Below are positions 610-17,558 of a stretch of 64,000 nucleotides of DNA, in pieces. The notes under the pieces were generated by a model. That model did not search any database and had not been told where the DNA came from. It saw only the letters and a program-made list of their open reading frames with translations. The stretch's first letter is position 1. Every line of letters starts with the position of its first letter. The position numbers and the translations under genes are program-made. Location: assembly GCA_018817425.1 (NCBI GenBank), contig JAHITX010000093.1:1-64000 (forward strand). The letters run 5' to 3'. The DNA is from Pseudomonadota bacterium. Its GTDB lineage: Bacteria > Desulfobacterota > Desulfobacteria > Desulfobacterales > RPRI01.

Positions 610-2535
610 TTATAGCTCTATCCCCATTTCGCCAAGGAATCTAGAAGGCTGCTTCGACCATCCAAAAACCTGTGCCGAGAAAGTCAGGGTCAGGCTTTCT
701 TGGGCGCGCGTAATCGCAACGAAGCAGTTCCGACGCTCCTCTTGCATTTCAAGGGATTTGTCGCCTTTCTTGACTGCGGCCCAACTTGGAAGCTGATCCT
801 CTACTAGGCCCATGAGATAGACATGCCCGAATTCCATCCCTTTTGATGCGTGGATAGTGAAACAAGGGATCGCTTCGGGCGGTTTCGGTGGTGTCTTGGA
901 GGTTAGATCGAGTTCATGAAGCAACTGGTGCAAGCTTATATCCTCGCCCTCGAATTTTTTTGTTATTTCGGCCAAAAGCATATTCCAGACCTCTCGTTCC
1001 TCCTCGAATTCGTTGAAGGCGTTCTCATCCGGTCGCGATGTTTGCTGGCAGGCTACCGCCCATTTCAAAAGTTTGTCTGCGAAGTCTCTATAATTCAGCG
1101 AGTTAAGAAGCGGTTTGATGTCGGTTTCGAGCAGTCGCCGCGTTTCTTTTTCCAAAACCTCGCGGCGCTTCACTTCGTCAAGCCAGGAACGTAGTAAGGC
1201 AATTCCGTCCGCAGATGCGCGGGAAAGGACCGGTGCCAGCTCAATGCTGATGCCATCCAGTTCATAAAACGCCTTGGAAAGCCGTGCGAGCGACTGCTTG
1301 TCTTCCGTTGAGTTCACCAAACGAAGTATGGCGTGCAGCATCCTCAAGGGAGCGCTTTTGAATTCATTCTTGCGGGCAGCGTAATAAACAGGAATCCCGG
1401 CTTCCTCAAGTTTTCGTCCGGCCAAGTCCAGAAGCTTTTTTGTCCGTGCGAGTACTACGCTGTCTTTACACTCTTCGGTGTTCCTTTGTGATATGTCTTG
1501 CGCGATCCACCCGGCTTCCTCATCTACCGAGTTGAAACGGAACACCCGCACGATATCGCCGCTTTCACCCTGCTTGACCGCTTTCAAAGGCTTTTTGCCA
1601 GCGGATCTGTTGAGATTTTTTTCAATCAGCGCGTTGGCCAATTCGATGACAAGCGGTGGGCAGCGGTAGTTTTCCGGTAGCTGCAACTCAGAGACACCAA
1701 AATCATCGCGCAACGCCTGTATTCTTTTGGGGCTAGCGCCATTCCATTGGTAAATAATCTGATCATCATCAGCCACGACAAACAACGTAGACGGGTCGGG
1801 CTGCGCTATATGTGAAAGAATCCGATATTGGGAATGGTTGGTGTCTTGAAATTCATCAACAAGTATGTGCTTAAAAACCTTTCGGATATGTTTGACGAGG
1901 AATGGGTATTTTCCAAGAAGGTCGAGCGACTCAGCTATCAGACTTGGAAAATCGAGGGAATTAGTCCTTCGCAATGCTTCTCTGTAAGCGGTATAGACCC
2001 GAGCCAATGGAATGGCATTATCTACGTTGGCCTGCTGAAGCATTACTTCCGCCTTATCTATTGGAACGCACTGTTCAAGAAGCCGTGTGACTGCGGGCAG
2101 GAGCTGACCGGCCTTGAAATGATCAGGGAACGAGTAGGCCAAGTCTTTTTTGAGCTGCCCAAGAACATCATCAAGCAACGCTTCTCGGTCGGCGTCGTTT
2201 GATAGAATCTGAAAGTCTGGGCGAAAGTCGAGATGGTTGCCATGCTGCTGGAGCAACTCAGCCGTATAAGAATGGAAGGTTGTGAGGCGCACACGGGCAA
2301 ATTCTTTTGGTACCAGTTTTTCAACCCTGCCACGCATCTCAGCTGCGGCCTTGTTGGTGAAAGTAAGCGCCAAAATTCGAAAATGCTGACCTGCGGATTC
2401 CTCTAGAATTCGAGCGATACGATTAGTCAGAACCCGAGTTTTACCCGAGCCAGGACCGGCCAATACAAGGAGAGGCCCATTGTCCCATAGTACAGCCTCT
2501 CGCTGGTTTTCGTTAAGCGTGGACAGATCAATCAT
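610..2535 (-). CDS. gajB: UvrD/Rep-type superfamily 1 helicase, GajB-like
   Basis: A 641-aa SF1A DNA helicase. Visible motifs in order: Walker A GPGSGKT (27-33), motif Ia LTFTNKAAAEM (57-67), Walker B DEFQDT (227-232), motif III DDDQIIYQWNGA (257-268), motif IV PENYRCP (288-294), motif V TIHASKGMEF (about 560) and motif VI VAITRAQESL (about 608). Its start is 5 bp after the stop of the OLD-family nuclease gene, so the two are surely co-expressed. An OLD-family nuclease followed by a UvrD-like helicase is the signature of Gabija defence, where GajB is thought to sense or unwind DNA ends and activate GajA. At 641 aa it is longer than the ~500-aa GajB of the best-studied system, so it may be a fuller helicase or a Gabija subtype. 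An attC-like stem-loop follows 28 bp after the stop. Confidence 0.85.
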   Translation of the reverse strand: MIDLSTLNENQREAVLWDNGPLLVLAGPGSGKTRVLTNRIARILEESAGQHFRILALTFTNKAAAEMRGRVEKLVPKEFARVRLTTFHSYTAELLQQHGNHLDFRPDFQILSNDADREALLDDVLGQLKKDLAYSFPDHFKAGQLLPAVTRLLEQCVPIDKAEVMLQQANVDNAIPLARVYTAYREALRRTNSLDFPSLIAESLDLLGKYPFLVKHIRKVFKHILVDEFQDTNHSQYRILSHIAQPDPSTLFVVADDDQIIYQWNGASPKRIQALRDDFGVSELQLPENYRCPPLVIELANALIEKNLNRSAGKKPLKAVKQGESGDIVRVFRFNSVDEEAGWIAQDISQRNTEECKDSVVLARTKKLLDLAGRKLEEAGIPVYYAARKNEFKSAPLRMLHAILRLVNSTEDKQSLARLSKAFYELDGISIELAPVLSRASADGIALLRSWLDEVKRREVLEKETRRLLETDIKPLLNSLNYRDFADKLLKWAVACQQTSRPDENAFNEFEEEREVWNMLLAEITKKFEGEDISLHQLLHELDLTSKTPPKPPEAIPCFTIHASKGMEFGHVYLMGLVEDQLPSWAAVKKGDKSLEMQEERRNCFVAITRAQESLTLTFSAQVFGWSKQPSRFLGEMGIEL

Positions 2536-2540
2536 TGCTA

Positions 2541-4268
2541 TTAGTCTCCGGCCAGTTGGACGACACGGGAAATGATGTCCTTGATTGTTTGGGGGATAGC
2601 TCCGACTCCGCGTTGCTTGACTTCAGTCGCCAATACCTGAGCAAAAGCCGGTTTGCCTCCAGCATTTTTGATGGCCGCCTTTATCATGAGCTTCGTTACT
2701 TTTGCGGCATCGCCCCCCGCTTCAGTTGGAATCTGGCCTTTACGGGTTTGTGATACCATGCTTTCGATAAACGCTTGATACCCATTGTGCCAGAATTCAT
2801 GTTCAATATCGTGATGAGCCAAAGTCCGTGCTCTGTCGGCGAGGCTTTCCCCTGCCGCAAGATGGTTGTTTGCACGGTTAACATAATCAGTTCCAGCCGG
2901 GTCTCCGTCCGCCATTAAGAACCACTGAACACCTAGTGCCTTGGCGAATTTGATCAACGGCTCACCTTTTTCAATAGCTTGGCTTATTTCCAAAATGGAG
3001 AAGCTGACTTGATCTTGGGAATGTCCCATTATGTCAAACAGTAACGGTAAAAGGTGATAATCCGATTCGCCTTCTACAAGAAGCCAGCAGCGAGAAAACA
3101 AATAGTGTCCTTTGGAAAGGCAGATATTGTAGTTAATAGCCTGAAGCTCTCGTTCTGAAAACGTACCGTCCGCAGCACGGCCAATTTTTGTTTCCCCATT
3201 ATTCTTATGCAGCCTACGTAGCGCGGTAACCGGAACCCTCGATATTAGGTCTCCTGAATGGCTCGTCACGAGAATTTGTCCGGTCATCTCCTTTAAAAAT
3301 GATCCTAACGACCGAATAGCTGAAGGATGCAGATGAGCTTCAGGTTCTTCCAAAGCCAGCAGAGGGGAAGATTCTGGTGCATAAGCTTCAGCCAGATTGG
3401 CGACTGTGAAGGCTTGAAAGAGCATTAATACAGCAAGGCTCTGCGTTCCTTCTCCATGTCGGTGTAAGGGGAGCTTTGCTCCGTAACACGACTTCAAATG
3501 AACCTGGATTTTCCCGACCATGTCGAAGACACGGGTTGGGATTGCCTCTAAAACCACAGGATTATCTGAATCCAGTGGGACAAGCAGCTTGGCATCGGCG
3601 ATTCTGTTTGTGACTTCAGTCAATCCCTCGTTCGCGCCAATTACGGAAGCGTTAACTTCCTGAAGCATTTCCTCTATCCTTTCGCGCTGTTCGTCTGGCA
3701 ATTGAATGGATTTCAGAAAACCGCTCCAGAATTGACCACGTGGTCCGAACTCCTGGGAGGCATTACGAATTGCGGAAAGAAAAAAGAGTGGCACAAAACG
3801 TGAAACCAGATTGAGTGGGGTTGCGTTTTTGAGATGTAGTTCCGCACCATTATTATCTAAGAATGCCCATTTGGTTTCAAACGATCCTGATTCCGCTTCG
3901 TAATTCCCATTCGCCTGCAACCTGATATGGTTCAGGCCATTTCCCATATCTAACTGGATCACTTCATCCAGTTGCTGGGAGATTGTATCTGGCCATTCAT
4001 CTACTTGTTCCTCGGCGAAATGCAAAATGATGGAAATGGGCTCAGCGGTTTGGGGTGTTGCAGTAGAGTCTTTCAGATGAAAATCGTATTCTGTGAAACG
4101 GCCATCATGGCGTACGCCGAAACCGCGCGTCAGCACAAGCCTCAATGCCTCCAGCACCGTTGATTTACCGGTGTTGTTTTCCCCGATGAGCACCGTCAGG
4201 TTGTCAAGTGGCAGATGTAGCGAGCGGATGCCACGGAAGTTTTGTATTTTGATCTCAATTAGTTTCAT
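2541..4268 (-). CDS. gajA: OLD-family ATPase/TOPRIM endonuclease, GajA-like
   Basis: A 575-aa protein with an ABC-type ATPase fused to a TOPRIM nuclease. The N-terminus reads as a SMC/OLD domain with Walker A GENNTGKST (29-37), a signature-like HGEGTQSLAVL (271-281), Walker B LALEEPEAHLHP (304-315) and a switch histidine in TSHSGDL (near 337). The TOPRIM part shows the acidic VEGESD (398-403) and the metal-binding DGDPAGTD (454-461). Length and layout match class 2 OLD proteins and GajA (about 578 aa), which nick or cleave DNA and are restrained by ATP. It starts 21 bp after the small SAP-like gene and ends 5 bp before the helicase gene. To the eye gajA and gajB are more G+C-rich than the two genes upstream, which hints that the operon was assembled from different sources. 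Confidence 0.87.
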   Translation of the reverse strand: MKLIEIKIQNFRGIRSLHLPLDNLTVLIGENNTGKSTVLEALRLVLTRGFGVRHDGRFTEYDFHLKDSTATPQTAEPISIILHFAEEQVDEWPDTISQQLDEVIQLDMGNGLNHIRLQANGNYEAESGSFETKWAFLDNNGAELHLKNATPLNLVSRFVPLFFLSAIRNASQEFGPRGQFWSGFLKSIQLPDEQRERIEEMLQEVNASVIGANEGLTEVTNRIADAKLLVPLDSDNPVVLEAIPTRVFDMVGKIQVHLKSCYGAKLPLHRHGEGTQSLAVLMLFQAFTVANLAEAYAPESSPLLALEEPEAHLHPSAIRSLGSFLKEMTGQILVTSHSGDLISRVPVTALRRLHKNNGETKIGRAADGTFSERELQAINYNICLSKGHYLFSRCWLLVEGESDYHLLPLLFDIMGHSQDQVSFSILEISQAIEKGEPLIKFAKALGVQWFLMADGDPAGTDYVNRANNHLAAGESLADRARTLAHHDIEHEFWHNGYQAFIESMVSQTRKGQIPTEAGGDAAKVTKLMIKAAIKNAGGKPAFAQVLATEVKQRGVGAIPQTIKDIISRVVQLAGD

Positions 4269-4289: not shown

Positions 4290-4697
4290 TTACTGTTCCT
4301 CTCCTATTGATTTATTTTGTATTGCAGCAGAGCGAAGTTTGAAGCCGATAGTTGATTCTATAATTTTTTCCTTTAGTTGATCAATTTTATCTGATTTTTG
4401 GACATGGATATCAACGATTTTTGATAGTGCTGTCAGTTCTTTTTTTGTTTTACAATGCTGGTTTAGATATTCTAAACCTTTTTCGCGGCTTTGAAATGAA
4501 TTTAGATCTGATTTTACTTTTAAATAATCAATATCGGAGGGTATAGATTTTTCAGAAGTTGATTTATTTTTAATAATATCAACTTTTATTGTAGCTTTAC
4601 CGGACGATATATCAGCAAGTTCTACTTCGCTAAATTTTTCCAATTCTTTAGCGAGGATATCAAATATCTTGCTAATAGTGTTTTTACTCTTTTTCAT
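4290..4697 (-). CDS. Small SAP/HeH-like protein between parA and gajA
   Basis: About 135 aa starting at the ATG at 4697, 7 bp after the stop of the ParA gene; upstream in-frame starts would lie inside parA and are rejected. The N-terminal half is lysine-rich with predicted helix and a short hydrophilic linker. The last ~55 residues, from KKELTALSKIVDIHVQKSDK to IGFKLRSAAIQN, have the spacing of a SAP/Rho-N-like helix-extension-helix, a small nucleic-acid-binding fold. I do not recognise a named family. Position directly after a ParA ATPase suggests the DNA-binding partner of ParA (ParB-like role), or an adaptor that links ParA to the GajA/GajB pair 21 bp downstream. A+T-rich like parA. Confidence 0.7.
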   Translation of the reverse strand: MKKSKNTISKIFDILAKELEKFSEVELADISSGKATIKVDIIKNKSTSEKSIPSDIDYLKVKSDLNSFQSREKGLEYLNQHCKTKKELTALSKIVDIHVQKSDKIDQLKEKIIESTIGFKLRSAAIQNKSIGEEQ

Positions 4698-4704
4698 AAA
4701 AACC

Positions 4705-5628
4705 TCATATTCCCGATTTATCAATAAATTCTGTAACAAATTTTTCAATTTCTTTAACCACATCAGCATAAGTTCCAGCAGAATAGTTATTAAGAACAAC
4801 AGGAACCCCATACTGTGGCGCATCCGAAAAAATTGTTTTATTTTCTCTAATATACTCATCAAACACTGGTATGCCCAACTTTTTTGTCTGACTAATATAT
4901 GGACGAAGGGCAGAAATTGGTTTGCCATTATTTATTTGAATCATTGTAAAAACAACTCCTAGTATTTCAGGATCAATTTTTTCATCTGGTTCATCATCTG
5001 CTATATCCACATATTCGTTGAAATCAGATACTAACTGATCTAAACTACGCTTCAAATAATCTATTCCTAATGTAGAAAGATAGTCTGGCTTGGCGGGTAT
5101 TAAAATATTATCACTTGCTACAATTGCTGTCTTTGTCACAACATTAAAATTAGGGGGACAATCTATTAGTATGAGATCATATTTTTCATCATCTATCTGC
5201 CGAATACCATTTGTTAATCTTTTATGGACCCTCAAAAAATTTTTTTTACTTTGTTTTAGGCTTGCCCCACCTAATTCAGTTGCTAATTCCAAATCAACAT
5301 TAATCAAACCCAGATGTGATGGAATTAAATCAAGTTTTCCTTTGCCACTCAATTTTGTGGATACATTTTTCGGTGAAAAAATTAGGTCGGTCAAATTCGA
5401 AGGAGAACCGTCTGAAAAAGAATCAAACCAATATTTAATTGTTTTTAAGGTTGAAAAATGTTTCTTCCATTCTTCAGGTTTTATGAATGAAAAGGTTAAG
5501 CTCGCTTGAGGATCAAGGTCAATCATAAGGACATTGTATCCCCTCCACGAAAGTTCCGCAGATAGATTTGCTGTTGTGGTAGTTTTGCCAACACCGCCTT
5601 TGTAATTTATGACTGACACAACATACAT
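4705..5628 (-). CDS. parA: ParA/MinD-family partition ATPase
   Basis: 307 aa. Deviant Walker A KGGVGKT at 10-16 with the signature lysine at 11, A' motif DLDPQ at 37-41, and Walker B LILIDCPP with D156. These define ParA-family ATPases that form ATP-dependent dimers and bind DNA non-specifically. There is no N-terminal HTH, so it is a type Ib/Soj-like short form. The gene opens a tightly packed run: SAP-like protein 7 bp later, then gajA and gajB. AGGAGG lies just upstream of the ATG. An attC-like element ends 36 bp before the start codon, so the leader is very short. Classical use is plasmid or island segregation; here co-transcription with a Gabija pair suggests either a stabiliser of the element or an extra component of the defence system. 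Confidence 0.88.
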   Translation of the reverse strand: MYVVSVINYKGGVGKTTTTANLSAELSWRGYNVLMIDLDPQASLTFSFIKPEEWKKHFSTLKTIKYWFDSFSDGSPSNLTDLIFSPKNVSTKLSGKGKLDLIPSHLGLINVDLELATELGGASLKQSKKNFLRVHKRLTNGIRQIDDEKYDLILIDCPPNFNVVTKTAIVASDNILIPAKPDYLSTLGIDYLKRSLDQLVSDFNEYVDIADDEPDEKIDPEILGVVFTMIQINNGKPISALRPYISQTKKLGIPVFDEYIRENKTIFSDAPQYGVPVVLNNYSAGTYADVVKEIEKFVTEFIDKSGI

Positions 5629-5664: not shown

Positions 5665-5761
5665 GTCTAACCCGGCTCACCGGCTGCCAAGGCCAAGTTG
5701 TGGGCTGCCAAGTTTGCACGGAGATACGGCCTTGGCAGTCCGTATGCAGTCGATGTTTATG
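5665..5761 (-). other. attC-like stem-loop between the zinc-ribbon gene and parA
   Basis: On the minus strand it begins CATAAAC, overlapping the TAA stop of the zinc-ribbon gene, and ends GTTAGAC, a perfect match to the integron R' consensus GTTRRRY. An 11-bp perfect stem CTGCCAAGGCC/GGCCTTGGCAG lies between. Flanking it the 5' arm reads CGG-A-CTGCC and the 3' arm pairs as CGG-CTGCC, leaving one unpaired A on the gene-proximal arm, the same side as in the element at 513-581. The 97-bp size is within the usual attC range. The parA start follows only 36 bp after the R' end, as in gene cassettes. It could instead be a plain stem-loop terminator, but it lacks a T-run. Confidence 0.55.
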
Positions 5762-6716
5762 CAATATCGTTCTCCTGTTTAGCTAAGTGAGGTAGGGTTG
5801 CTCTAATGGTTGCTTTTAAATCTTGTCCAGCTTTCGGTAAGTTGTCTTTATCCCACATGATAGTAAGATGGTGATTGGTGTCAAAATGGGTTTTGGTAGT
5901 ATCAAATTTGTCTTTTTCACAGATATAAATTACTGGTTTGCCTAGCCCTTCTGCATATCCAGCTTCCCAGTAAGCCCCAGGATTGTCGTGAGTTAAGTCT
6001 GCTACTAGAAAATCCGATGATTGAATCTCAACCCTTAACCTATCGTCGATAAGACCAGCTTTCGGTGTGTCATCAAGTCGAAGAAGTTCGAAACCAGCCT
6101 GTTTGGCACATGGTTTCAGAATTTCGGCCAAGAGTTGATCAAGAAGTGGATCGCCAAACTTCATGGCTATGAACCCCTTTTTATAGGTTGCTCCACCACG
6201 GCACAACTCTTCGTAATAATTCCAGCCATCAAAAGAGAGGGTAATATCCGCTGTAATTGGTTCGCTCATGGCGTCATCGTTCAGATATCCATTAACAAGA
6301 TCAGCCTTAAACAGGTGTTTAAGGACAAGCCCGAATCCTTCATCGGTCTTGGCACCTATTATTGAACGATGGGTTGCCGGTGTGATTAATACTGTTTCAC
6401 CTGGCCCTTCGATATTCTCAGCAAGCCAACGTATGAAAAGATCGGCCTGTTCCCTTGGCGTTGGCAATGGACGTTTAAGAATCTCATCCACGGTATGGGG
6501 GTTAATTTCTGGAACCACGTTGTTCTGCTGCATGGTCCTGATTGCATGGCTGATCTTGTTGCTTCCGTCCTTGTTATTTATCAGTGTCTTTGGAAGAAAA
6601 GTGACAAGAATAGATGAAAGAATGAATTCGCCGCATAATGTACAACGGAATTGCCTTGAATTCATACTCGCAACATCTTCTATCGCAGAACCACAGACTG
6701 GGCAAAGTTTTGACAT
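5757..6716 (-). CDS. Zinc-ribbon protein with nucleoside deoxyribosyltransferase/TIR-like C-terminal domain
   Basis: 319 aa. The N-terminus carries a zinc ribbon, C5-P-V-C8 and C25-T-L-C28. The middle (about 50-170) has no family I recognise. The C-terminal ~135 residues follow the nucleoside 2-deoxyribosyltransferase pattern: GFIAMKFG strand, then ADLTHDNPGAYWEAGYAEGL with D240, N245 and E251, followed by GKPVIYI. In that fold the acidic residues act on N-glycosidic bonds of nucleosides, and related TIR domains cleave NAD. AGGAG sits 6-7 bases before the ATG. The gene is followed by an attC-like site overlapping its stop and preceded by a long leader hairpin. Location in a defence island makes a nucleotide- or NAD-directed effector a reasonable inference, but the substrate cannot be read from sequence. 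Confidence 0.75.
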   Translation of the reverse strand: MSKLCPVCGSAIEDVASMNSRQFRCTLCGEFILSSILVTFLPKTLINNKDGSNKISHAIRTMQQNNVVPEINPHTVDEILKRPLPTPREQADLFIRWLAENIEGPGETVLITPATHRSIIGAKTDEGFGLVLKHLFKADLVNGYLNDDAMSEPITADITLSFDGWNYYEELCRGGATYKKGFIAMKFGDPLLDQLLAEILKPCAKQAGFELLRLDDTPKAGLIDDRLRVEIQSSDFLVADLTHDNPGAYWEAGYAEGLGKPVIYICEKDKFDTTKTHFDTNHHLTIMWDKDNLPKAGQDLKATIRATLPHLAKQENDIA

Positions 6717-7220: not shown

Positions 7221-8285
7221 TCAGCAGCACTTTGGAGTGTGGAAATATGATTTGATTATTTGATCTTTATGAAATTCAATGTTCGGCTGAAGAATTTTAA
7301 GCGAGTCTCCAAGTTCTATAATAATGGTTCCAGCACATGGACACCCTTTTTGCTCGACAAAAAACGCGTCCGTTTCACTACAGTATTGTTTAAACCGCTT
7401 GATCAAGTTTTTTTGTTTTAAATCAATTTCCCCTATGCATTGGCTTGTAGCCTGAGTACATAGAACACGGATGTCAGGATGATTATTTAGTGTTTTAAAG
7501 ACATGCGGGTTTGGATGATTGTATCTATCCCCATCGGTCCCGACTGAAACAACAACCACAGACGGAGATATTGTATTCAATAAATCTTCTGGGTTACTGT
7601 CTTTCCATGCGCCATGGTGTGGGAACTTCAATACATCGCCGGATATTTCGGTTTTGTTTTTCCTCAAGCAATTCCAACCAGCGGGTTCTAAATCACCGGT
7701 TAGAATTGCACTCGTTCCATTTCCATTTATTTTCAGAACAGCGGAAATATCATTCAGACTTTTTCCTATGAGCCCATCAATATCCACTTCCCAAGGGTGA
7801 ACCAGTTCGATAATTCCAGGAAGCGGGAGACTACTTATATCCACCTGTTTCGTCAGCCTTTTGAAACGATCGCGATGCGACTGAGCCCATTTGAGGATTT
7901 CTATGCGAATATCCTTGAATCGCCGTTTTCTGGAAGTTTCGTCTGGAGAAATATCAGAATGGCCATCTCCATCATTTTGAAGTCGTTGCCAGATTTTTTC
8001 ATTAACATATGGATGGCAGAAAAACACGCGCTCACAAATCAAATTAAGCTGACTTTTGGCATTGGCAATAAAACCCATCATTCCTTTGCAATGATCAAGG
8101 TGCAAATGAGTTAGGATCAATCCTCGTACATGACGAATATCATATTTTTCAAGATAGCTTATAACCGCTTCGGCATCGATACAATCGATAATTACTGCTT
8201 CATGTGTTTCAGGAACGGATACGACAATCGTATCTCCTTGTCCGACATCAATAAAAGCGACTCTTACCGTTGTTTTTTTTATCAT
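7221..8285 (-). CDS. ComEC/Rec2-type metallo-beta-lactamase-fold hydrolase
   Basis: 354 aa, soluble, with no membrane segments. The N-terminus FIDVGQGDTIVV (11-22) and the metal motif THLHLDH (59-65) are typical of the C-terminal hydrolase domain of ComEC. Further metal or active-site elements are ILTGDL (about 200) and KFPHHGAWKDS (about 225), with NHPNPH near 265. In ComEC this domain is a nuclease acting on incoming DNA; stand-alone copies are often annotated only as MBL hydrolases. The gene starts 18 bp after the methyltransferase stop, so it is the last gene of a MerR-methyltransferase-hydrolase operon. The pairing suggests that it replaces the endonuclease of a modification-restriction pair, which is an inference. 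The long 3' tail (about 290-354) has five cysteines (CSE, CPCAG, CC end) of unknown role. Confidence 0.8.
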   Translation of the reverse strand: MIKKTTVRVAFIDVGQGDTIVVSVPETHEAVIIDCIDAEAVISYLEKYDIRHVRGLILTHLHLDHCKGMMGFIANAKSQLNLICERVFFCHPYVNEKIWQRLQNDGDGHSDISPDETSRKRRFKDIRIEILKWAQSHRDRFKRLTKQVDISSLPLPGIIELVHPWEVDIDGLIGKSLNDISAVLKINGNGTSAILTGDLEPAGWNCLRKNKTEISGDVLKFPHHGAWKDSNPEDLLNTISPSVVVVSVGTDGDRYNHPNPHVFKTLNNHPDIRVLCTQATSQCIGEIDLKQKNLIKRFKQYCSETDAFFVEQKGCPCAGTIIIELGDSLKILQPNIEFHKDQIIKSYFHTPKCC

Positions 8286-8303
8286 AAGATTTGGGATTTC
8301 TCG

Positions 8304-11075
8304 TTACGAAAGGACTTTTTCCAATTTCCGGAATATCTCTTCTTCACTTAAATATGTATAATCCTGAGGACTGAATTTTTCCAAATAAGCATTCCCAAGA
8401 CTACGTTTTCTCAGACTTTCCCGCGGAATGTTTGTCCGGAATGCAGTTTCCGGCCGCAACAGCCATCCCGGCATAGATGGCGAAATCGGTACGGTTTGCA
8501 ATTCATCAAAATCACTTATCCAGAGAGTTATTGTACCGTTATCGATATCGATACTGTCTACCACACCGGTCGTTTTCCAGTTAGCATCCACATCTGGTAA
8601 TTTATCTATAGTAATCTTTGGCTTTGTGTCCCATTCATATATGGATGTTACCCGCTCATATTCTTCATCGCTGAGTCTGTATGCATCCTTTAATACGTTA
8701 TCTATTTTTGAATATGCATCATCGGATGGTTTCCCATTTTTAACTATGGACTCTTCTATTTCAAGTACCGCCTTATTTAAAATCTCACAATCTTTCTTGC
8801 TCAGGGTCGGAAAAGGTATACTTTGCACAGCGCGCATCGGTATTTTAGGATGTTTAAGATGTTCAACGATCCAGGCATTACTGATCTTCCAATTCATTAC
8901 CGCGGCAACAACCTCATGAGTAATATGTCTCTTTTCCATCTCTGATTTTGGTGCAATAACTATAAAACTGTCCGATACATAATATCCCCTTCTCTCAATT
9001 GCTACTTTCACACGTTTGCCCCAGCTTGGATCAGTATTAGAAGATAGCAATATTTTTTTTCCTTTAAGAAGATGTTCTTTATCTCTTTTTGGATTTTTAT
9101 TTTTACGCGGTTTTTCCAAATCATTTGGATAAACTATGGTAACTTCTGAATCATAAACAAGGTTAAAAGAATCTTTTATTACATTTTTTGCACCCGTAAG
9201 CCAATTCACTTCCTCTGGATACGGATAGTCTCGCCAACTTTTATTTTTCGGGTTTTTACCGACTATTGCGCCAGAAATGATTTCAGCAATGTTTTCGAAC
9301 TTTGTGCAACATGATTCTATTCTATCCCAAGATGATTCCAGCAGAATAAATTTAAAATCCATTATATGTGTATTCACGGAGTCTGATGACTTACTGGAAT
9401 TCTCATCCCAACGAGCCTGGTCGGAAAAGTATGTCGATCTTGTAAAAGTTCCAGATTCTTCAAACCTTCCTATCGTGTTTTTTTGCAGTGTTCGGGTTCT
9501 AACGGGGAAAACACTTTGAGACGAACGCTCTTTCTTTCGAGCAAAAAGGACAGCTGTTCTGACTGTTGCATCAGGAAAAAGCCCATCGGGCAGTTCCCAT
9601 ATCTCCTGTACGTCACAGTTGTGCAAAAGCATTTTGCGAAGATTTGGGGACGCCTCTGAAATAGTAAAGGATTGAGGCATGATCATGGCCATATATCCGC
9701 CAGGTGTAAGGTATTTGATTGCACATTCCATGAATTTGTCTGCCTTTTGATGTCTGTGCGTCTCTCCTTTAATTGTTTTTCGATCTCCGGCGAAAGGTGG
9801 ATTCCCAACTATGATACCAGGACCTGTTTGACCATATTTCTTTGCCATCCATTCTTCCGAATCGTGGCTCTCTATATCCCAACTGTCTTCGGATGTTGAA
9901 ATGAGTAATCCCAAACCGGACAAACGTGCCGTAAAATTATCCATGTCATTTCCGGTTATTAATTCTCGGAGTGATTTCTCTCTCATATCGATCATACGCG
10001 ACATCCGTTCGAATCCGGCGATGAGGAAACTACCCCAACCACAGGTCATATCCGCCACTACCCTTTTTTCGGGAGGTAAAAATTCCACAGGGATGGTTTT
10101 CCAGATACGGCGGGTAAGGTAAAGCGGGGTGTCATAGCGGCCTAATGCTTTTCTGTCTTCTTTGTCAGGATAAGCCTCTCTGTAGAGACTTGTAAGCATT
10201 TCCGGTGAAAAACCTGAGTAACACAATTCCGTTAAATTATGATAAGTCAAATCGGCCGCTTTTTCCCATTGACTGAGGAGCTGTGTATTGAAATAGTTTG
10301 GAAATTTGCGCCTTGCTGCAGCTATAAGTTCTTCAATCCCTGGTTTATTGTTCTGAATATCCCGTCCCAGCGTTCCGTTATCCGCTAGTATTACAGCGCC
10401 TAAAAGCTGTATGGCAATATCTGTTACATCTTTATTGGGTATGGGTCTTCCGCTTTTTGAATCCCGATACCTTGCCAGATTGTTTACCGCGTGCCCAAAA
10501 TGTTTCACTAATGATTCGCCGGTTACATCGATAGCCCAAAGTGATAGCTGAAAATGACCGAATTCTTTGAAACGTGAATGGGTAAATTCCTCTATCCCCT
10601 GTTTAACATTGATAATATGGCTGCGGTTTAAATCCTCTGAATATTGACGCAGAGCACTGGATAGATTGCCATAGCTGACATCGGATTCGATTTTTATGGA
10701 CTCTAATTTTCCTGCTTTTCTATCGTTGACATTGGTAAACCAAAACGAAAAATTCTTTTTCTTGTCCTTATGAATGAAATGAAAGGGTGCGGCGGAACGA
10801 GCAAGAATCGTAACGAGCTTGCGCTCATCTCTTTCATCCGTGGTATTGAAAACAGAAAAACCAGTATAATCAGGTGTTCGGTGTGTTTCGTGGGTAAAGG
10901 CAATTGCGTTTGCTTTAAATTCCCGTTTATCGATGCCAAGAAATGGATATTCTTCCTTGATCATCGTTCCAGGTGTAAAATCGTATTCTTTTAGAACACC
11001 GAAAACCGCATTGCGGGCATTTTGACTTAGCGGCCTATATGGGAATTCCTGTGTATGAACGTCAGATAATGACAT
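8304..11075 (-). CDS. N6-adenine DNA methyltransferase (type I/IIG-like)
   Basis: 923 aa. A ~310-residue N-terminal region of unknown fold precedes the catalytic core: GRYDTP (312-317, motif X-like), SAM-binding DMTCGWGSF (342-350) and catalytic NPPF (425-428), the gamma/N6-adenine pattern. Residues about 580-800 look like a target-recognition region (LTGAKNVIKDSF, WNISNAW-like segments, SIPFPTL). A ~90-residue C-terminal tail follows. No PD-(D/E)XK or helicase motif is apparent, so unlike type IIG enzymes it does not obviously carry its own nuclease. It ends 18 bp before the MBL hydrolase gene and starts 18 bp after the MerR-like gene. BREX PglX and DISARM methylases are alternatives by size, but none of their partner genes is present. 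Confidence 0.85.
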   Translation of the reverse strand: MSLSDVHTQEFPYRPLSQNARNAVFGVLKEYDFTPGTMIKEEYPFLGIDKREFKANAIAFTHETHRTPDYTGFSVFNTTDERDERKLVTILARSAAPFHFIHKDKKKNFSFWFTNVNDRKAGKLESIKIESDVSYGNLSSALRQYSEDLNRSHIINVKQGIEEFTHSRFKEFGHFQLSLWAIDVTGESLVKHFGHAVNNLARYRDSKSGRPIPNKDVTDIAIQLLGAVILADNGTLGRDIQNNKPGIEELIAAARRKFPNYFNTQLLSQWEKAADLTYHNLTELCYSGFSPEMLTSLYREAYPDKEDRKALGRYDTPLYLTRRIWKTIPVEFLPPEKRVVADMTCGWGSFLIAGFERMSRMIDMREKSLRELITGNDMDNFTARLSGLGLLISTSEDSWDIESHDSEEWMAKKYGQTGPGIIVGNPPFAGDRKTIKGETHRHQKADKFMECAIKYLTPGGYMAMIMPQSFTISEASPNLRKMLLHNCDVQEIWELPDGLFPDATVRTAVLFARKKERSSQSVFPVRTRTLQKNTIGRFEESGTFTRSTYFSDQARWDENSSKSSDSVNTHIMDFKFILLESSWDRIESCCTKFENIAEIISGAIVGKNPKNKSWRDYPYPEEVNWLTGAKNVIKDSFNLVYDSEVTIVYPNDLEKPRKNKNPKRDKEHLLKGKKILLSSNTDPSWGKRVKVAIERRGYYVSDSFIVIAPKSEMEKRHITHEVVAAVMNWKISNAWIVEHLKHPKIPMRAVQSIPFPTLSKKDCEILNKAVLEIEESIVKNGKPSDDAYSKIDNVLKDAYRLSDEEYERVTSIYEWDTKPKITIDKLPDVDANWKTTGVVDSIDIDNGTITLWISDFDELQTVPISPSMPGWLLRPETAFRTNIPRESLRKRSLGNAYLEKFSPQDYTYLSEEEIFRKLEKVLS

Positions 11076-11093
11076 TTCTGATTCCTTATGAAT

Positions 11094-11555
11094 TCAAGCT
11101 TCAACGGTTTTATGAATTTCTTTTTCAAGCCCGCCAATATTTTCTTTCTTTAAATAATCGCATTCCGTTTTTTGCAGCTTGATCATTTCCGATTCGATTT
11201 TGCCGGTATCAAATGTAAAGTACTGCTGTCTTGTAATTGCACTGTAATAATTACCTTTTTCAACAACGATCATATCGATACCGTCCGTATGAATCATCAA
11301 TCGGGTCATGTGATCTTCAGTATTTGGTAGTATACTAGATAAATTATCAATACCCTTTCTTACTTTCTGAAGACTCAATCCATTCCGCCTCAACTGGACT
11401 AAAACCCGTAATTTAACGATATCTCTAAACGAATAATAATGGGTTTTTCCAATACGTATAGGTGTGATAACATGTAGCTTGACCCAATATTTAAATTGGT
11501 TTTCCGTAGCCCCAGTCAGCTTACGCACAAATTTTGTTGAGTAGTTATAGTTCAT
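11094..11555 (-). CDS. MerR-like DNA-binding regulator heading the methyltransferase operon
   Basis: 153 aa from the ATG at 11555; an in-frame GTG at 11606 would add 17 residues but lies in front of or over a possible promoter. The N-terminus matches a MerR winged helix: FVRKLTGATENQFKYWVKLHVITPIRIG, then YYSFRDIVKLRVLVQLRRNG, a LR..G-type second helix pair. There are no paired cysteines for metal sensing. The C-terminal half is a short, mostly helical tail. It precedes the methyltransferase gene by 18 bp, so it probably controls the operon, as controller proteins do in modification systems. It may instead be a structural DNA-recognition subunit. Confidence 0.7.
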   Translation of the reverse strand: MNYNYSTKFVRKLTGATENQFKYWVKLHVITPIRIGKTHYYSFRDIVKLRVLVQLRRNGLSLQKVRKGIDNLSSILPNTEDHMTRLMIHTDGIDMIVVEKGNYYSAITRQQYFTFDTGKIESEMIKLQKTECDYLKKENIGGLEKEIHKTVEA

Positions 11556-11594
11556 AAATCGGTTGAAAAAATCTCTATTAAGGCTTTTTTTAAA

Positions 11595-11623
11595 CCAATA
11601 TAACACAAAGAAGCACTCGTCAA
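11595..11623 (-). promoter_or_regulatory. Possible promoter of the MerR-methyltransferase-hydrolase operon
   Basis: Minus strand TTGACG at 11623-11618, a 17-bp spacer, then TATTGG at 11600-11595. The -35 is good but the -10 is poor. If used, the transcript would start near 11588, which favours the downstream ATG at 11555 over the GTG at 11606. Confidence 0.3.
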
Positions 11624-12359: not shown

Positions 12360-13493
12360 ATGATAAAGACTAAGGATATAAAAGCCGTTGAATTAGGGCC
12401 ACGGCAATTGATGTTCGGTTTTGAAGATCATACAGAGGGCCGTCAGGATCTTATTGTTGAAGGCATTAAAACAATGCTGGAAGCCCAGGGTCAGCTTTCC
12501 ATTGAGCACTTTGTGGAACATATGGAACAGGCAGGATGGACTTGCTCAGACATATTGCAGCATGTTTTCTGGGCTGCTCTTGAACTGAAAATTCATTTCC
12601 TATGGAACAACCGCATGCTGTCTCCATTTGAGGCAAAACTTCATCTTCTGCAATCACCTAAAAATGCTGTGGAGCTGATCACAAACAAAAAAGTCAGACC
12701 CTCCGTATTCCAAGAAGCAGCTTCAATTTATCGGACAATTTCGAACGATGATAATCAGGAATACGGAAATGATCAATACCAATTGGCCTTGTCTTTGTTT
12801 TCGGTTTTGCATCATTGGGAAAAACTGTTGATCTTTTTTGCTGGAAAAGCTCAAAAACCTTTTTACCCCGGCAAGGAGCTTGTCAGTAAACATCAACAGT
12901 CATTAAACCTGTTGTTGTCTAAAAAAGATTCATATTCCCTGCTTTCCAATTGCTGTAACCACTCGGACACCCTTTTTGAAATAGCCCAGGATATAAAAAT
13001 GCTGTCTGTTTTTTATTCAGAACATGTTTTTTTCTGGGAAAATTTGATACAATCAATGGGTGACTTTGATGAAAGTCTTGCCGAGATTCGAAATTTCCCG
13101 GAAATATTGCATGCACATGAACAATTAAACCAGATCCTGACCTCCGCTTTCCCATATGACAGAATTAATAAAGCAAAGTTGCTACTGTCAAAGGTCCGGG
13201 AGCTGAATGACCGTATCCTTAAAGAAAAGATTAATAATTTCCGCAGGACAGCATCATACAGAATCAATACAATGATTGACCACTTGTCAGGACTGCTTGA
13301 ACAGCTAAACACGAAACCGGATAAACGGAACCGGATATTGTATCCTCTGCATATGCAGAAAAAACGACTGGGGGTAATGAACAGCATGCAAGAGATAGAT
13401 GACCTGTTAAACCAGACCCTGGAGCAGGCGGATGATTTCATCACTGAACTGGAAAATGACTGCTATACAGAAATAAATATAAGGAAACAATAA
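12360..13493 (+). CDS. Unknown helical protein paired with a SEC-C protein
   Basis: 377 aa, not recognised. It is acidic-to-neutral and appears almost wholly helical, with a heptad-like stretch from about 275 to 370 (SKVRELNDRILKEKINNF; EIDDLLNQTLEQADDFITEL). No signal peptide, membrane segment or catalytic motif is seen. The stop overlaps the next start (TAATG), so the two products are translationally coupled and probably interact. No clear Shine-Dalgarno precedes the ATG. It lies on the opposite strand from the other defence genes and next to them, so an accessory or defence role is plausible but not shown. Confidence 0.65.
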   Translation: MIKTKDIKAVELGPRQLMFGFEDHTEGRQDLIVEGIKTMLEAQGQLSIEHFVEHMEQAGWTCSDILQHVFWAALELKIHFLWNNRMLSPFEAKLHLLQSPKNAVELITNKKVRPSVFQEAASIYRTISNDDNQEYGNDQYQLALSLFSVLHHWEKLLIFFAGKAQKPFYPGKELVSKHQQSLNLLLSKKDSYSLLSNCCNHSDTLFEIAQDIKMLSVFYSEHVFFWENLIQSMGDFDESLAEIRNFPEILHAHEQLNQILTSAFPYDRINKAKLLLSKVRELNDRILKEKINNFRRTASYRINTMIDHLSGLLEQLNTKPDKRNRILYPLHMQKKRLGVMNSMQEIDDLLNQTLEQADDFITELENDCYTEINIRKQ

Positions 13494-14347
13494 TGGTATT
13501 TGCAAAAGATAACTCTTTAAGAGAAATAAGAGCCACCATCATAAGAGATAACTGTTCCGAAACCTACATGTGTGATTTTTTTTCATGTGACAACCCTGTG
13601 TGTACCTGCGGTTCTGTTCAAGTTGCCCTTACGCCGATAGCTGACACAGTAAAAAAGTCCGTCCCCTCCCGTTATATAGATATTGATCTGCCTGAAAAGA
13701 AACTTCAGAAAGATGCGAAAAGCAAAACCCACGAAAGAGACCTGGCATTTGCCAATATTTTCTTTTCACAGCTTGAGACTGTGGATTTTAATATACTGGC
13801 TGAACAACATTTTGTTTACAAAAATCGAATTACCGAAAATGCAGATATCAACGCCATAGATGCGTACTTTGATTATCCGGGAGTGGAAATGGAAGGGCTG
13901 ATGTACGCATATAATGATATTCTTCCTTATGCAGACCAGATGTTGGTTCATATCGACGGAATGGAGTGTCTGATTTTCGATCAGTTTTGTCTTTTACCTG
14001 ACTGTACCTGTACGGATACTTTTCTTGATCTTAAATATATAAATAAAGAACACAGTAGATTGGAAGATTTTTGCACGCTGAAAGTTATCTACGCAAAAAA
14101 AGAATGGGAATTCGAAGAAAGATCGTCCGACACTCTCCCATTGAAAAAAATCAGATCCCTCATTGAGCAACAGAACCCGGATTTATATTCAAGCCTATCC
14201 GCACGCCATAAAAAACTAAAAGCTATTTATTGGAACTGCAGGGCAAAAAACTTTACTCCTGCCCGGCAGCCAAAGAGTGAAAAAGTCGGCAGAAACGAAC
14301 TTTGTCCCTGCGGAAGCGGGAAAAAATACAAGAAATGCTGTATGTAA
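13493..14347 (+). CDS. SEC-C motif protein
   Basis: 284 aa. The C-terminus is a textbook SEC-C zinc motif, CPCGSGKKYKKCC at 271-283, preceded by VGRNEL. The N-terminus carries another cysteine cluster (CDFFSCDNPVCTCG, about 27-40) and a later CLLPDCTC, so it may bind more than one metal ion. SEC-C tails mediate protein or nucleic-acid contacts in SecA and many unrelated proteins. The rest is unassigned. Start overlaps the stop of the 377-aa gene by one base. Confidence 0.72.
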   Translation: MVFAKDNSLREIRATIIRDNCSETYMCDFFSCDNPVCTCGSVQVALTPIADTVKKSVPSRYIDIDLPEKKLQKDAKSKTHERDLAFANIFFSQLETVDFNILAEQHFVYKNRITENADINAIDAYFDYPGVEMEGLMYAYNDILPYADQMLVHIDGMECLIFDQFCLLPDCTCTDTFLDLKYINKEHSRLEDFCTLKVIYAKKEWEFEERSSDTLPLKKIRSLIEQQNPDLYSSLSARHKKLKAIYWNCRAKNFTPARQPKSEKVGRNELCPCGSGKKYKKCCM

Positions 14348-16706: not shown

Positions 16707-17558
16707 TCATCTGATAAAGCCTTGGTAAATGGCATTTCCAAGTTTTACAAACTCTTCTATTGTCAGGGTTTCCGCGCGTCTTATAGGATCTATTCCTACA
16801 CTGTTTAATGCTGATTCTGCGGTTTGTGCATTAATTTTAAGTTCACTTGACGAAAGTGAATTTTTAAGGGTTTTGCGTCTTTTCCCGAAGGCAGCTTTGA
16901 TAACATTAAAAAAGAATTGTTCGTCATCTACCAAAAATTCCGGATGTTCCCTGAATCTGATCTCAAGCATCTGGGAGTCTATTTTTGGCTTTGGGAAAAA
17001 AAGAGAGGCTTTTATATCAGCGATTACAGATGAATCCGCACAATATTTCAGCATAACCGAAATTCTTCCGTAATCTTTATTGCCGGGTTTCCCGCAGATT
17101 CTTCCGGCAAGTTCTTTCTGGAACATCAATATGGCACGACTTATACTGCTTCGTTCTTTTATAAGTTTTATAAGTATTTGGGAAGAGATATTGTATGGGA
17201 GATTTCCTATTACAATAATTTTCTTATCATGTCTTGCTGCAAGTCCATGTATATCAAGTTTAAGTATATTTTCATTTAATATTTCAACATTATCAACAGA
17301 TTTTGATAGAAGTTCATTTTCTAAGAGCGGGATCAGGCCATTGTCTTTTTCAACTGAATATACCTTTGCAGCAGAGGCTGCCAGAGGCAACGTGAGAGCT
17401 CCGAGACCAGCTCCTATTTCAAGAATGATATCTTCGGGTAATATTTTTGAGCGTAGAACTATCATTTCTGCTGTTGATGGATCGGAAAGAAAATTTTGCC
17501 CGAATTGTTTTTTGGGAGAAAGGTTCCATGCAGAAAGTAATGATCTTGGAGAAGTCAT
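16707..17558 (-). CDS. rsmA: 16S rRNA dimethyladenosine transferase
   Basis: 283 aa. Dimethylates the two adjacent adenines in the 3'-terminal helix of 16S rRNA during late 30S assembly. Visible: KKQFGQNFLSD (16-26), SAM motif EIGAGLGAL (47-55), acidic motif VEKD (69-72) and catalytic NLPY (119-122). The C-terminal RNA-binding domain is complete (FGKRRKTLKNSL). Its ATG overlaps the stop of the DUF2062 gene by 4 bp. Confidence 0.95.
   Translation of the reverse strand: MTSPRSLLSAWNLSPKKQFGQNFLSDPSTAEMIVLRSKILPEDIILEIGAGLGALTLPLAASAAKVYSVEKDNGLIPLLENELLSKSVDNVEILNENILKLDIHGLAARHDKKIIVIGNLPYNISSQILIKLIKERSSISRAILMFQKELAGRICGKPGNKDYGRISVMLKYCADSSVIADIKASLFFPKPKIDSQMLEIRFREHPEFLVDDEQFFFNVIKAAFGKRRKTLKNSLSSSELKINAQTAESALNSVGIDPIRRAETLTIEEFVKLGNAIYQGFIR

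What the first reader, a model, noticed from the sequence alone, without database searches (positions are those of the whole stretch)
7221..11555. MerR-like regulator, N6-adenine methyltransferase and ComEC-type hydrolase form an unnamed three-gene system
Seen: the three genes are in one direction with 18-bp gaps. The methyltransferase has motif I and NPPF but no nuclease motif; the hydrolase carries THLHLDH and DVGQGD like the ComEC nuclease domain. Known: modification systems pair a methyltransferase with a nuclease, and ComEC-type MBL domains act on DNA. Inference: a restriction-modification-like defence in which an MBL nuclease spares DNA methylated by its partner, under control of a MerR-type switch. 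I cannot match this set to BREX, DISARM, or standard type I-III systems.
Basis: partly seen in the sequence, partly recalled or inferred. Interest (0 to 1): 0.8.

Follow-up and report, generated by a model that had tools for sequence, protein, structure and literature searches.

The report
DNA methyltransferase that may restrain toxins
A bacterial DNA-methylating enzyme sits between a regulator gene and a predicted toxin gene, and in relatives the toxin gene is exchanged together with the enzyme's tail, which suggests that the enzyme holds a toxin in check rather than forming an ordinary restriction system.

Summary
The three genes are real: MerR regulator, N6-adenine DNA methyltransferase, ComEC-like MBL hydrolase. 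The same order occurs on a cyanobacterial plasmid. Of 28 loci of this methyltransferase family that I examined, 25 have a toxin-fold gene next: 9 MBL, 12 PIN, 3 HEPN, 1 RES. The methyltransferase tail tends to go with the toxin: an Xre antitoxin domain with RES; with HEPN, a domain that is elsewhere a separate small protein before the same HEPN family; with MBL, a domain absent from 17 non-MBL members. Some PIN tails do not resemble each other. In two same-genus genomes, methyltransferase plus toxin are swapped while flank and MerR stay. This MerR occurs at 8 of 28 loci, each with the same inverted-repeat operator, found once in the window's genome. Best reading: a toxin-antitoxin-like guard system whose methyltransferase carries the antitoxin. 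Restriction by the MBL is less likely but not excluded. Function is inferred throughout.

The parts
11597..11623 (-). Promoter-like element of the operon (TTGACG ... TATATT, 15-bp spacer as I read it)
   Evidence: Regular expression upstream of the MerR ATG; a promoter-like pair at 7 of the 8 loci with this MerR, the window included. The short spacer is a weak point.
11561..11596 (-). Proposed MerR operator: inverted repeat GGTTTAAAA...TTTTCAACC directly after the -10-like box
   Evidence: 1 match in the window, 0 in 100 shuffles; 1 in the 5.1-Mb own genome, 0 in the reversed control. A slightly looser pattern (RGTT) is at 8 of 8 loci with this MerR and nowhere else in 347 kb of loci.
11094..11555 (-). 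MerR-family regulator, 153 aa, inferred autorepressor
   Evidence: MerR_1 4.5e-9; 56-60% identical to MerR of seven other operons (six PIN-type, counting one whose contig ends inside the methyltransferase, and one MBL-type) whose methyltransferases are 17-20% identical to the window's.
8304..11075 (-). N6-adenine DNA methyltransferase, 923 aa, motifs I and IV intact
   Evidence: N6_Mtase 6.2e-20; motifs; solved relatives HsdM and BseCI.
8307..8591 (-). C-terminal domain of the methyltransferase (residues 829-923), seen only in MBL-type members; proposed MBL-binding (antitoxin-like) domain
   Evidence: Profile trained without window and Pseudanabaena hits window 3.4e-13 and Pseudanabaena 3.8e-8; the best of 17 non-MBL members has E=0.32.
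7221..8285 (-). ComEC-like MBL-fold hydrolase, 354 aa, proposed toxin/effector
   Evidence: AlphaFold model (mean pLDDT 69.8) best matches the ComEC beta-lactamase-like domain 9ic4, E=5.3e-13.

Best explanation
A toxin-antitoxin-like guard module. MerR represses the operon from an inverted-repeat operator just behind the -10 box. The methyltransferase methylates adenines at a specific site and, through its C-terminal domain, binds the MBL hydrolase and keeps it inactive. When the methyltransferase is lost, inhibited or drawn to foreign or altered DNA during infection, the MBL is released and cleaves nucleic acid, stopping growth or killing the cell. Shown here by sequence: gene set, conserved operator, intact catalytic motifs, exchange of toxin together with the tail in several cases, and an antitoxin fusion in the RES relative. 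Inferred: binding and inhibition of the MBL by the tail, MBL toxicity, nucleic acid as substrate, repression by MerR, the trigger, and a role against phages.
For: Downstream toxin-fold gene at 25 of 28 loci, four kinds. RES relative: methyltransferase fused to an Xre/MbcA/ParS antitoxin domain and followed by RES; of 30 matching plasmid records, 27 match the tail only, 18 of these annotated Xre/MbcA/ParS antitoxin and 4 DUF2384. HEPN relatives: the tail domain is a separate protein directly before the same HEPN family at both of the two matches that lie outside a methyltransferase, among 3 matches in 117 genomes. Among relatives with cores 49-58% identical, HEPN and PIN tails are unrelated. 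MBL-specific tail. Same-locus swap of methyltransferase plus toxin. Conserved operator. Close or overlapping junctions between methyltransferase and toxin: -38 to +18 bp at 20 of 21 measured, 72 bp at one. Precedent for guarding: PrrC, silenced by a linked type I restriction enzyme and activated by a phage anti-restriction factor (PMC2610378, abstract in the listing; PMC12707154, passages).
Against: No stand-alone copy of the MBL-type tail beside an MBL was found, so its antitoxin role rests on analogy with RES and HEPN. Two scans for stand-alone copies of the PIN-type tail found none, and rhizobial PIN-type tails (L009, L055) do not resemble those of the other PIN types (scores 3-16), so the tail does not always follow the toxin fold. 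MerR of this kind is at only 8 of 28 loci, a distant MerR at L005, other small HTH-like genes at L009 and L056, and none recognised at the other 17. No RX4-6H motif is shared by the five HEPN proteins, and Pfam HEPN is marginal for one (21.9 bits, cut-off 22) and absent for another. The Xre domain is just under its Pfam cut-off (22.1 vs 24.5). MBL-type methyltransferases are one group in the tree, so the MBL is not seen to swap within a close lineage there. No activity, toxicity or phage data.
Confidence: 0.55

Rival explanations
1. Restriction-modification-like defence: the methyltransferase marks self DNA and the MBL cuts unmethylated DNA, directed by the methyltransferase's target-recognition region.
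For: Motif IV NPP[FY] in 26 of 26 methyltransferases and motif I by my pattern in 25 of 26; MBL nearest to the ComEC domain; defence genes nearby in the window (Gabija). MBL-type members are a group of their own, so they could work differently from the PIN, HEPN and RES types.
Against: The equivalent position holds RES, PIN or HEPN genes in relatives, families known to me as NAD- or RNA-attacking toxins; the tail is an antitoxin domain in the RES case. No ATPase, translocase or separate specificity gene in the operon.
Confidence: 0.2
2. Epigenetic toxin switch: methylation of a site in or near the promoter by the methyltransferase, read by MerR, sets toxin expression, so that loss of the operon or entry into a new cell triggers the toxin (addiction).
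For: MerR and operator stay while methyltransferase and toxin change.
Against: The same operator serves methyltransferases only 17-20% identical to the window's, so a shared methylation site in it is unlikely. The genes run in one direction, so antitoxin and toxin would rise together.
Confidence: 0.1
3. MBL as partner enzyme in another process (for example processing of nucleic acid taken up or of a nucleotide signal), with no toxin role.
For: ComEC-type MBL domains, RNase Z/J and Apyc1 share the fold.
Against: Position shared with toxin families; exchange at one locus; patchy distribution: MBL-type tail in 7 of 291 genomes of the class.
Confidence: 0.1

Closest known systems
PrrC/EcoprrI and other restriction guardians (PARIS)
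   Same: A toxin kept silent by a DNA-modifying defence complex and released when that complex is disturbed (passages of PMC12707154). A works-like comparison.
   Different: No HsdR/HsdS; a single methyltransferase carries the proposed toxin-binding tail; the toxin is MBL, PIN, HEPN or RES.
Type II toxin-antitoxin systems (Xre-RES, VapBC)
   Same: RES with an Xre-type antitoxin domain, PIN genes, a likely operator for autoregulation, short operons.
   Different: The antitoxin domain sits on a large DNA methyltransferase; a separate MerR regulator at part of the loci.
MADS (methylation-associated defence system)
   Same: Weak mad1 and mad2 profile matches to MerR and methyltransferase.
   Different: MAD2 scores 33 of 720 bits needed; no MADS set seen among the neighbours scanned, apart from a sub-threshold MAD3 match of the GajA gene; the PADLOC mad2 profile also matches an rRNA dimethylase in this window, so it is unspecific.
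6A-MBL anti-phage system (NCBIfam NF058524)
   Same: An MBL-fold effector.
   Different: 25 bits against a cut-off of 220; its partner genes could not be learned with these tools.
Avs1a, LmuA and DRT MBL effectors (PADLOC)
   Same: Same ComEC-like MBL superfamily in defence.
   Different: Here the partner is a methyltransferase; the usual partners of those effectors are known to me by recall only and were not seen in the operon.

Membership tests
Type I-III restriction-modification | Active DNA methyltransferase | tested here: inconclusive
   Motifs I and IV intact; activity not measured.
Type I-III restriction-modification | Cognate restriction endonuclease of a known kind in the operon | tested here: not met
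   Only MerR and a ComEC-like MBL accompany it.
MADS | MAD2 methyltransferase and further mad genes | tested here: not met
   MAD2 33.2 bits vs cut-off 720; MAD3 51 vs 420 for the GajA gene; neighbours are Gabija, ParA-like, BrxC fragment.
6A-MBL | MBL-fold protein over the NF058524 cut-off | tested here: not met
   25 bits vs 220; no match at E<=1e-5 in the own genome.
6A-MBL | Partner genes of the system | not testable with these tools
   Full-text search for the name found 0 papers.
BREX | PglX methyltransferase with the other BREX core genes | tested here: not met
   PglX-type match 27.9 vs 500 bits; a gene like the C-terminal part of BrxC lies nearby on the other strand.
Type II toxin-antitoxin | Toxin of a known toxin family next to its antitoxin | tested here: inconclusive
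   RES relative: PF08808 1.5e-16 and Xre domain 22.1 vs 24.5 bits; PIN relatives PF01850, 6 of 12 checked with Pfam. MBL is not an established toxin-antitoxin toxin.
Type II toxin-antitoxin | Autoregulation through an operator | tested here: inconclusive
   Conserved inverted repeat at 8 of 8 loci with this MerR; binding not measured.
Type II toxin-antitoxin | Antitoxin neutralises the toxin | not testable with these tools
   Needs expression tests.
PrrC-like restriction guardian | Toxin silenced by the modification enzyme and released by its inhibition | not testable with these tools
   Analogy only.

The most novel reading that the evidence does not exclude
A modular class of immune system in which a sequence-specific DNA methyltransferase is itself the antitoxin and sensor: its C-terminal tail holds whichever toxin (MBL, PIN, HEPN, RES) is encoded next, toxin and methyltransferase are exchanged as a cassette, in part of the family behind one constant MerR-operator switch, and the state of methylation or an attack on the methyltransferase fires the toxin.
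Probability: 0.4. Interest if true: 0.9.

Novelty: new variant of a known kind. Interest (0 to 1): 0.76.

Why it matters
It would join restriction-modification and toxin-antitoxin systems in one protein: a DNA methyltransferase whose tail holds a toxin. It offers a way to predict the effector partner from the tail, describes a module that the searched profile libraries do not name, and makes testable how cells could punish phages that disable DNA methylation without needing a restriction enzyme.

Tried and rejected
MADS membership: mad1 and mad2 profiles match, but mad2 also matches the rRNA dimethylase gene at 16707-17558; rejected. 6A-MBL: below cut-off, no paper found. A DUF3006-like nature of the MBL-type tail was a guess from reading; Pfam at E<=10 gave no such match.

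Searches with little or no yield: methyltransferase as single query in 395 genomes of the phylum at E<=1e-30, own only; MBL profile from two sequences, own only among 395 at E<=1e-15; MBL-type members of the class came up later with another profile. Viral contigs: methyltransferase, none; PIN-type tail, none; PIN-type methyltransferase profile, one; MBL, 31 loci, ComEC-type by score and reading, 23 of them used for the structure model, neighbours not examined. MerR in the one genome scan: one locus, because only two weak patterns were used. MerR against plasmids: 15 records; five neighbourhoods read, none with an annotated methyltransferase. MBL-type tail against plasmids: 7 records, all E>=4. 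PIN-type tail against plasmids: one record, E=0.5, a methyltransferase.

Of the 60 plasmid and 45 phage records that match the window methyltransferase at E<=1e-5, mostly over its catalytic core, I read the neighbourhood of 2 plasmid records and of no phage record. The first was chosen because MBL and methyltransferase hits coincided, the second for its longer coverage; so the 28 loci are a steered sample.

Structure of the methyltransferase: three-row alignment, pLDDT 37, not used. Small control: three generic methyltransferases of the own genome (L002-L004) show no PIN-, MBL-, HEPN- or RES-like neighbour that I recognise by eye; not tested with profiles.

Papers: searches returned none; two searches listed one paper (PMC3710099), read in passages; one search listed 20 off-topic titles of 1,297; one search listed one and two papers that I did not open; one search listed 6 of 20. 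Most subscription papers and all preprints are missing from the library, so absence from print is not shown.

Full report
What is there. The three ORFs of the finding lie at the stated coordinates with 18-bp gaps. They are a MerR-family regulator, an N6-adenine DNA methyltransferase with intact motifs I and IV, and an MBL-fold hydrolase. The MBL is nearest to the ComEC domain: the ComEC model gives 74 bits, below its cut-off of 190; solved ComEC chains are the best sequence matches of a profile of eight such MBL proteins; and the ComEC beta-lactamase-like domain 9ic4 is the best structural match of a medium-confidence model (mean pLDDT 69.8, 71 of 354 residues under 50). Fifteen columns, including His60, Asp64, His65, Asp198 and His223-224, are identical in all eight.

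Recurring set. On plasmid NZ_CP112875.1 of the cyanobacterium Pseudanabaena galeata the same three genes stand in the same order, annotated MerR regulator, N-6 DNA methylase and hypothetical protein. The MerR, methyltransferase and MBL there are 22, 25 and 29% identical to the window's in the alignments. The window's phylum is probably Desulfobacterota: a same-phylum contig (G039:C56) has the length and genes of a named Desulfobacterales contig (that this order belongs to Desulfobacterota is recalled).

Exchangeable toxin gene. Profiles of the methyltransferase matched 6 of 395 genomes of the phylum, own included, at E<=1e-20 and 15 of 389 of the class at E<=1e-30, own not among them. With four plasmid loci and one viral contig, 28 loci were examined. 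The next gene on the same strand is MBL at 9 (window, L005, L086, L088, L089, L090, L092, L093, L094; L092 cut by the contig end, L093 shortened to 218 aa, L088 behind a methyltransferase split in two ORFs), PIN at 12 (L009, L055, L057, L059, L076-L081, L083, L085; L059 cut by the contig end, L057 short at its start), HEPN at 3 (L063, L075, L084) and RES at 1 (L056). One has only a broken MBL start (L087), one a truncated methyltransferase with no such gene (L091), one ends at the contig edge (L082). Pfam was run on 6 of the 12 PIN (all over the cut-off), 6 of the 9 MBL (3 over, 3 just or somewhat under), 2 of the 3 HEPN (one at 21.9 against 22 bits, one no match) and the RES (over); the other calls rest on BLAST or alignment to these. 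The sample was steered by the queries, so the proportions are not frequencies in nature.

Tail and toxin. In the RES relative the methyltransferase ends in an Xre/MbcA/ParS antitoxin domain (Pfam E=1.5e-4, 22.1 bits against 24.5). 30 plasmid records match this protein; 3 are whole methyltransferases, 27 match the tail only, of which 18 are annotated Xre/MbcA/ParS antitoxin, 4 DUF2384, 2 hypothetical, and 3 have no annotation. In HEPN relatives a different tail of about 100 residues was searched in 117 genomes: 3 matches, one on a methyltransferase and two in small separate proteins. Both small proteins stand directly before a HEPN-family gene 32-39% identical to those behind methyltransferases. 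I had expected this from the antitoxin-tail idea, and it held in 2 of 2. In MBL relatives a third tail is shared: a profile trained without window and Pseudanabaena finds it in both (3.4e-13, 3.8e-8), and the best of 17 non-MBL members has E=0.32; narrower profiles reach less far (trained on five of L089-L094 only: window 4e-5, L086 0.01, one PIN type 0.19). In 291 genomes it occurs in 7: six times within a methyltransferase ORF and once in a 221-aa ORF directly behind a shortened methyltransferase ORF, probably a frame break. Among relatives whose cores are 49-58% identical, HEPN and PIN tails are unrelated (scores 9-38, against 207-283 within HEPN and 114 within PIN type); likewise L009 (PIN) and L056 (RES), core 46%, tail score 20. 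Against strict matching: the tails of the rhizobial PIN types L009 and L055 do not resemble those of the other PIN types compared (scores 3-16). The L055 tail was cut too early in that script.

Swap at one locus. In two genomes of one genus, L081 and L093, DNA is 94-98% identical through the upstream stretch and 90% through MerR, and the match ends at or just before the start of the methyltransferase. One continues with a PIN-type methyltransferase and PIN, the other with an MBL-type methyltransferase and an MBL gene. The two MerR proteins are 89% and the methyltransferases 18% identical. The MBL of L093 is short, so this copy may be decaying. The window's MerR is 56-60% identical to that of seven other loci, whose methyltransferases are 17-20% identical to the window's. 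MerR is not constant, however: this kind is at 8 of 28 loci, a distant MerR at L005, and other small HTH-like genes at L009 and L056; a profile that included all of these found none at the other 17 (some of those contigs end nearby).

Operator. Directly behind a -10-like box lies an inverted repeat, RGTTNAAAA-N-TTTTCAACC, at all 8 loci with this MerR; 7 of 8 also show a promoter-like pair. It occurs nowhere else in 347 kb of loci. The stricter form GGTTNAAAA occurs once in the window against 0 in 100 shuffles and once in the 5.1-Mb genome. The pattern was derived from these loci, so the 8 of 8 is partly by construction; the absence elsewhere is not. Its place suggests repression. The cyanobacterial locus lacks it.

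Tree. A quick tree of 26 methyltransferases, tails left out (of the 28, L088 split and L091 truncated were dropped), puts all 9 MBL-type members on one side of a starred branch and needs 4 changes of toxin type over four kinds, against a shuffled mean of 11.0. RES and HEPN fall among PIN-type members. Window and Pseudanabaena are long branches and their direct pairing is not secure.

How it most likely works. The arrangement resembles a toxin-antitoxin operon with a DNA methyltransferase as the antitoxin-bearing protein. I propose that the tail holds the MBL inactive, that MerR keeps the operon low, and that disturbance of the methyltransferase during infection or loss frees the MBL. The nearest working analogue is PrrC, silenced by a linked type I restriction enzyme and activated by a phage anti-restriction factor (abstract of PMC2610378 in the listing; passages of PMC12707154). 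Binding, toxicity, substrate, repression and trigger are inferred. Restriction by the MBL remains possible, because MBL-type members form a group of their own and their tail has no known stand-alone antitoxin.

Known or new. No match over a curated NCBIfam cut-off was seen for the three window proteins or for ten proteins of relatives. PADLOC matches are partial or weak. MADS and 6A-MBL membership fail on score. Paper searches gave no account of such a set, within a library that lacks most subscription papers and all preprints. PMC3710099 (passages) states that HEPN domains in restriction systems fuse to endonucleases, helicases and ATPases but not to methylases, while its table mentions one HEPN family occasionally fused to nucleic acid methylase domains; here the HEPN is separate but its proposed partner domain is on a methylase.

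Noticed in passing
window 610-4268 (-): Gabija pair: GajA (E=1.1e-178) and GajB (E=1.1e-246) by PADLOC; the left 14 kb looks like a defence island beside housekeeping genes.
   Followed up: partly
window 4290-5628 (-): A 212-aa ORF without a significant family match overlaps a ParA/Soj-like ATPase gene by 224 bases on the same strand.
   Followed up: no
window 12360-14347 (+): A 377-aa gene matching only the C-terminal part of BREX BrxC (positions 785-1115 of 1190), followed by a SEC-C motif protein.
   Followed up: no
window 5757-6716 (-): Protein with a zinc-ribbon-like start and a nucleoside deoxyribosyltransferase-like end (just under the Pfam cut-off), weakly like a TIR effector in PADLOC.
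   Followed up: no
L096 1129-2221; L097 1366-2180: Two-gene pair of a small protein plus HEPN-family protein with no NCBIfam match at E<=0.001 and only weak PADLOC matches (Cas5 5.7e-6 for L096, HEPN_IX 5.5e-5 for L097): an unnamed toxin-antitoxin-like pair whose first protein is the tail domain of HEPN-type methyltransferases.
   Followed up: partly
window 16707-17558 (-): The PADLOC mad2 profile matches this rRNA adenine dimethylase gene at 4.6e-18, so that profile is unspecific for MADS.
   Followed up: yes
L089, L090, L092, L093, L094 methyltransferase N-termini: A conserved AD-x-V-x-Y ... TAVI(S/G)-x-K stretch reminds me of a PD-(D/E)XK core; the window protein has Asn at the similar place (KANAIAF). 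Read by eye, not tested.
   Followed up: no
L086 728-5130 (+): Directly upstream of an MBL-type methyltransferase stand a 315-aa gene and a 1152-aa gene with a P-loop-like start that look like another defence system (DUF4007-like by recollection, not tested).
   Followed up: no
L049 11635-16427 (+): Behind the MerR-methyltransferase-PIN set of this Desulfobacterales contig lie genes that read like a type III restriction-modification pair (by eye; not tested).
   Followed up: no
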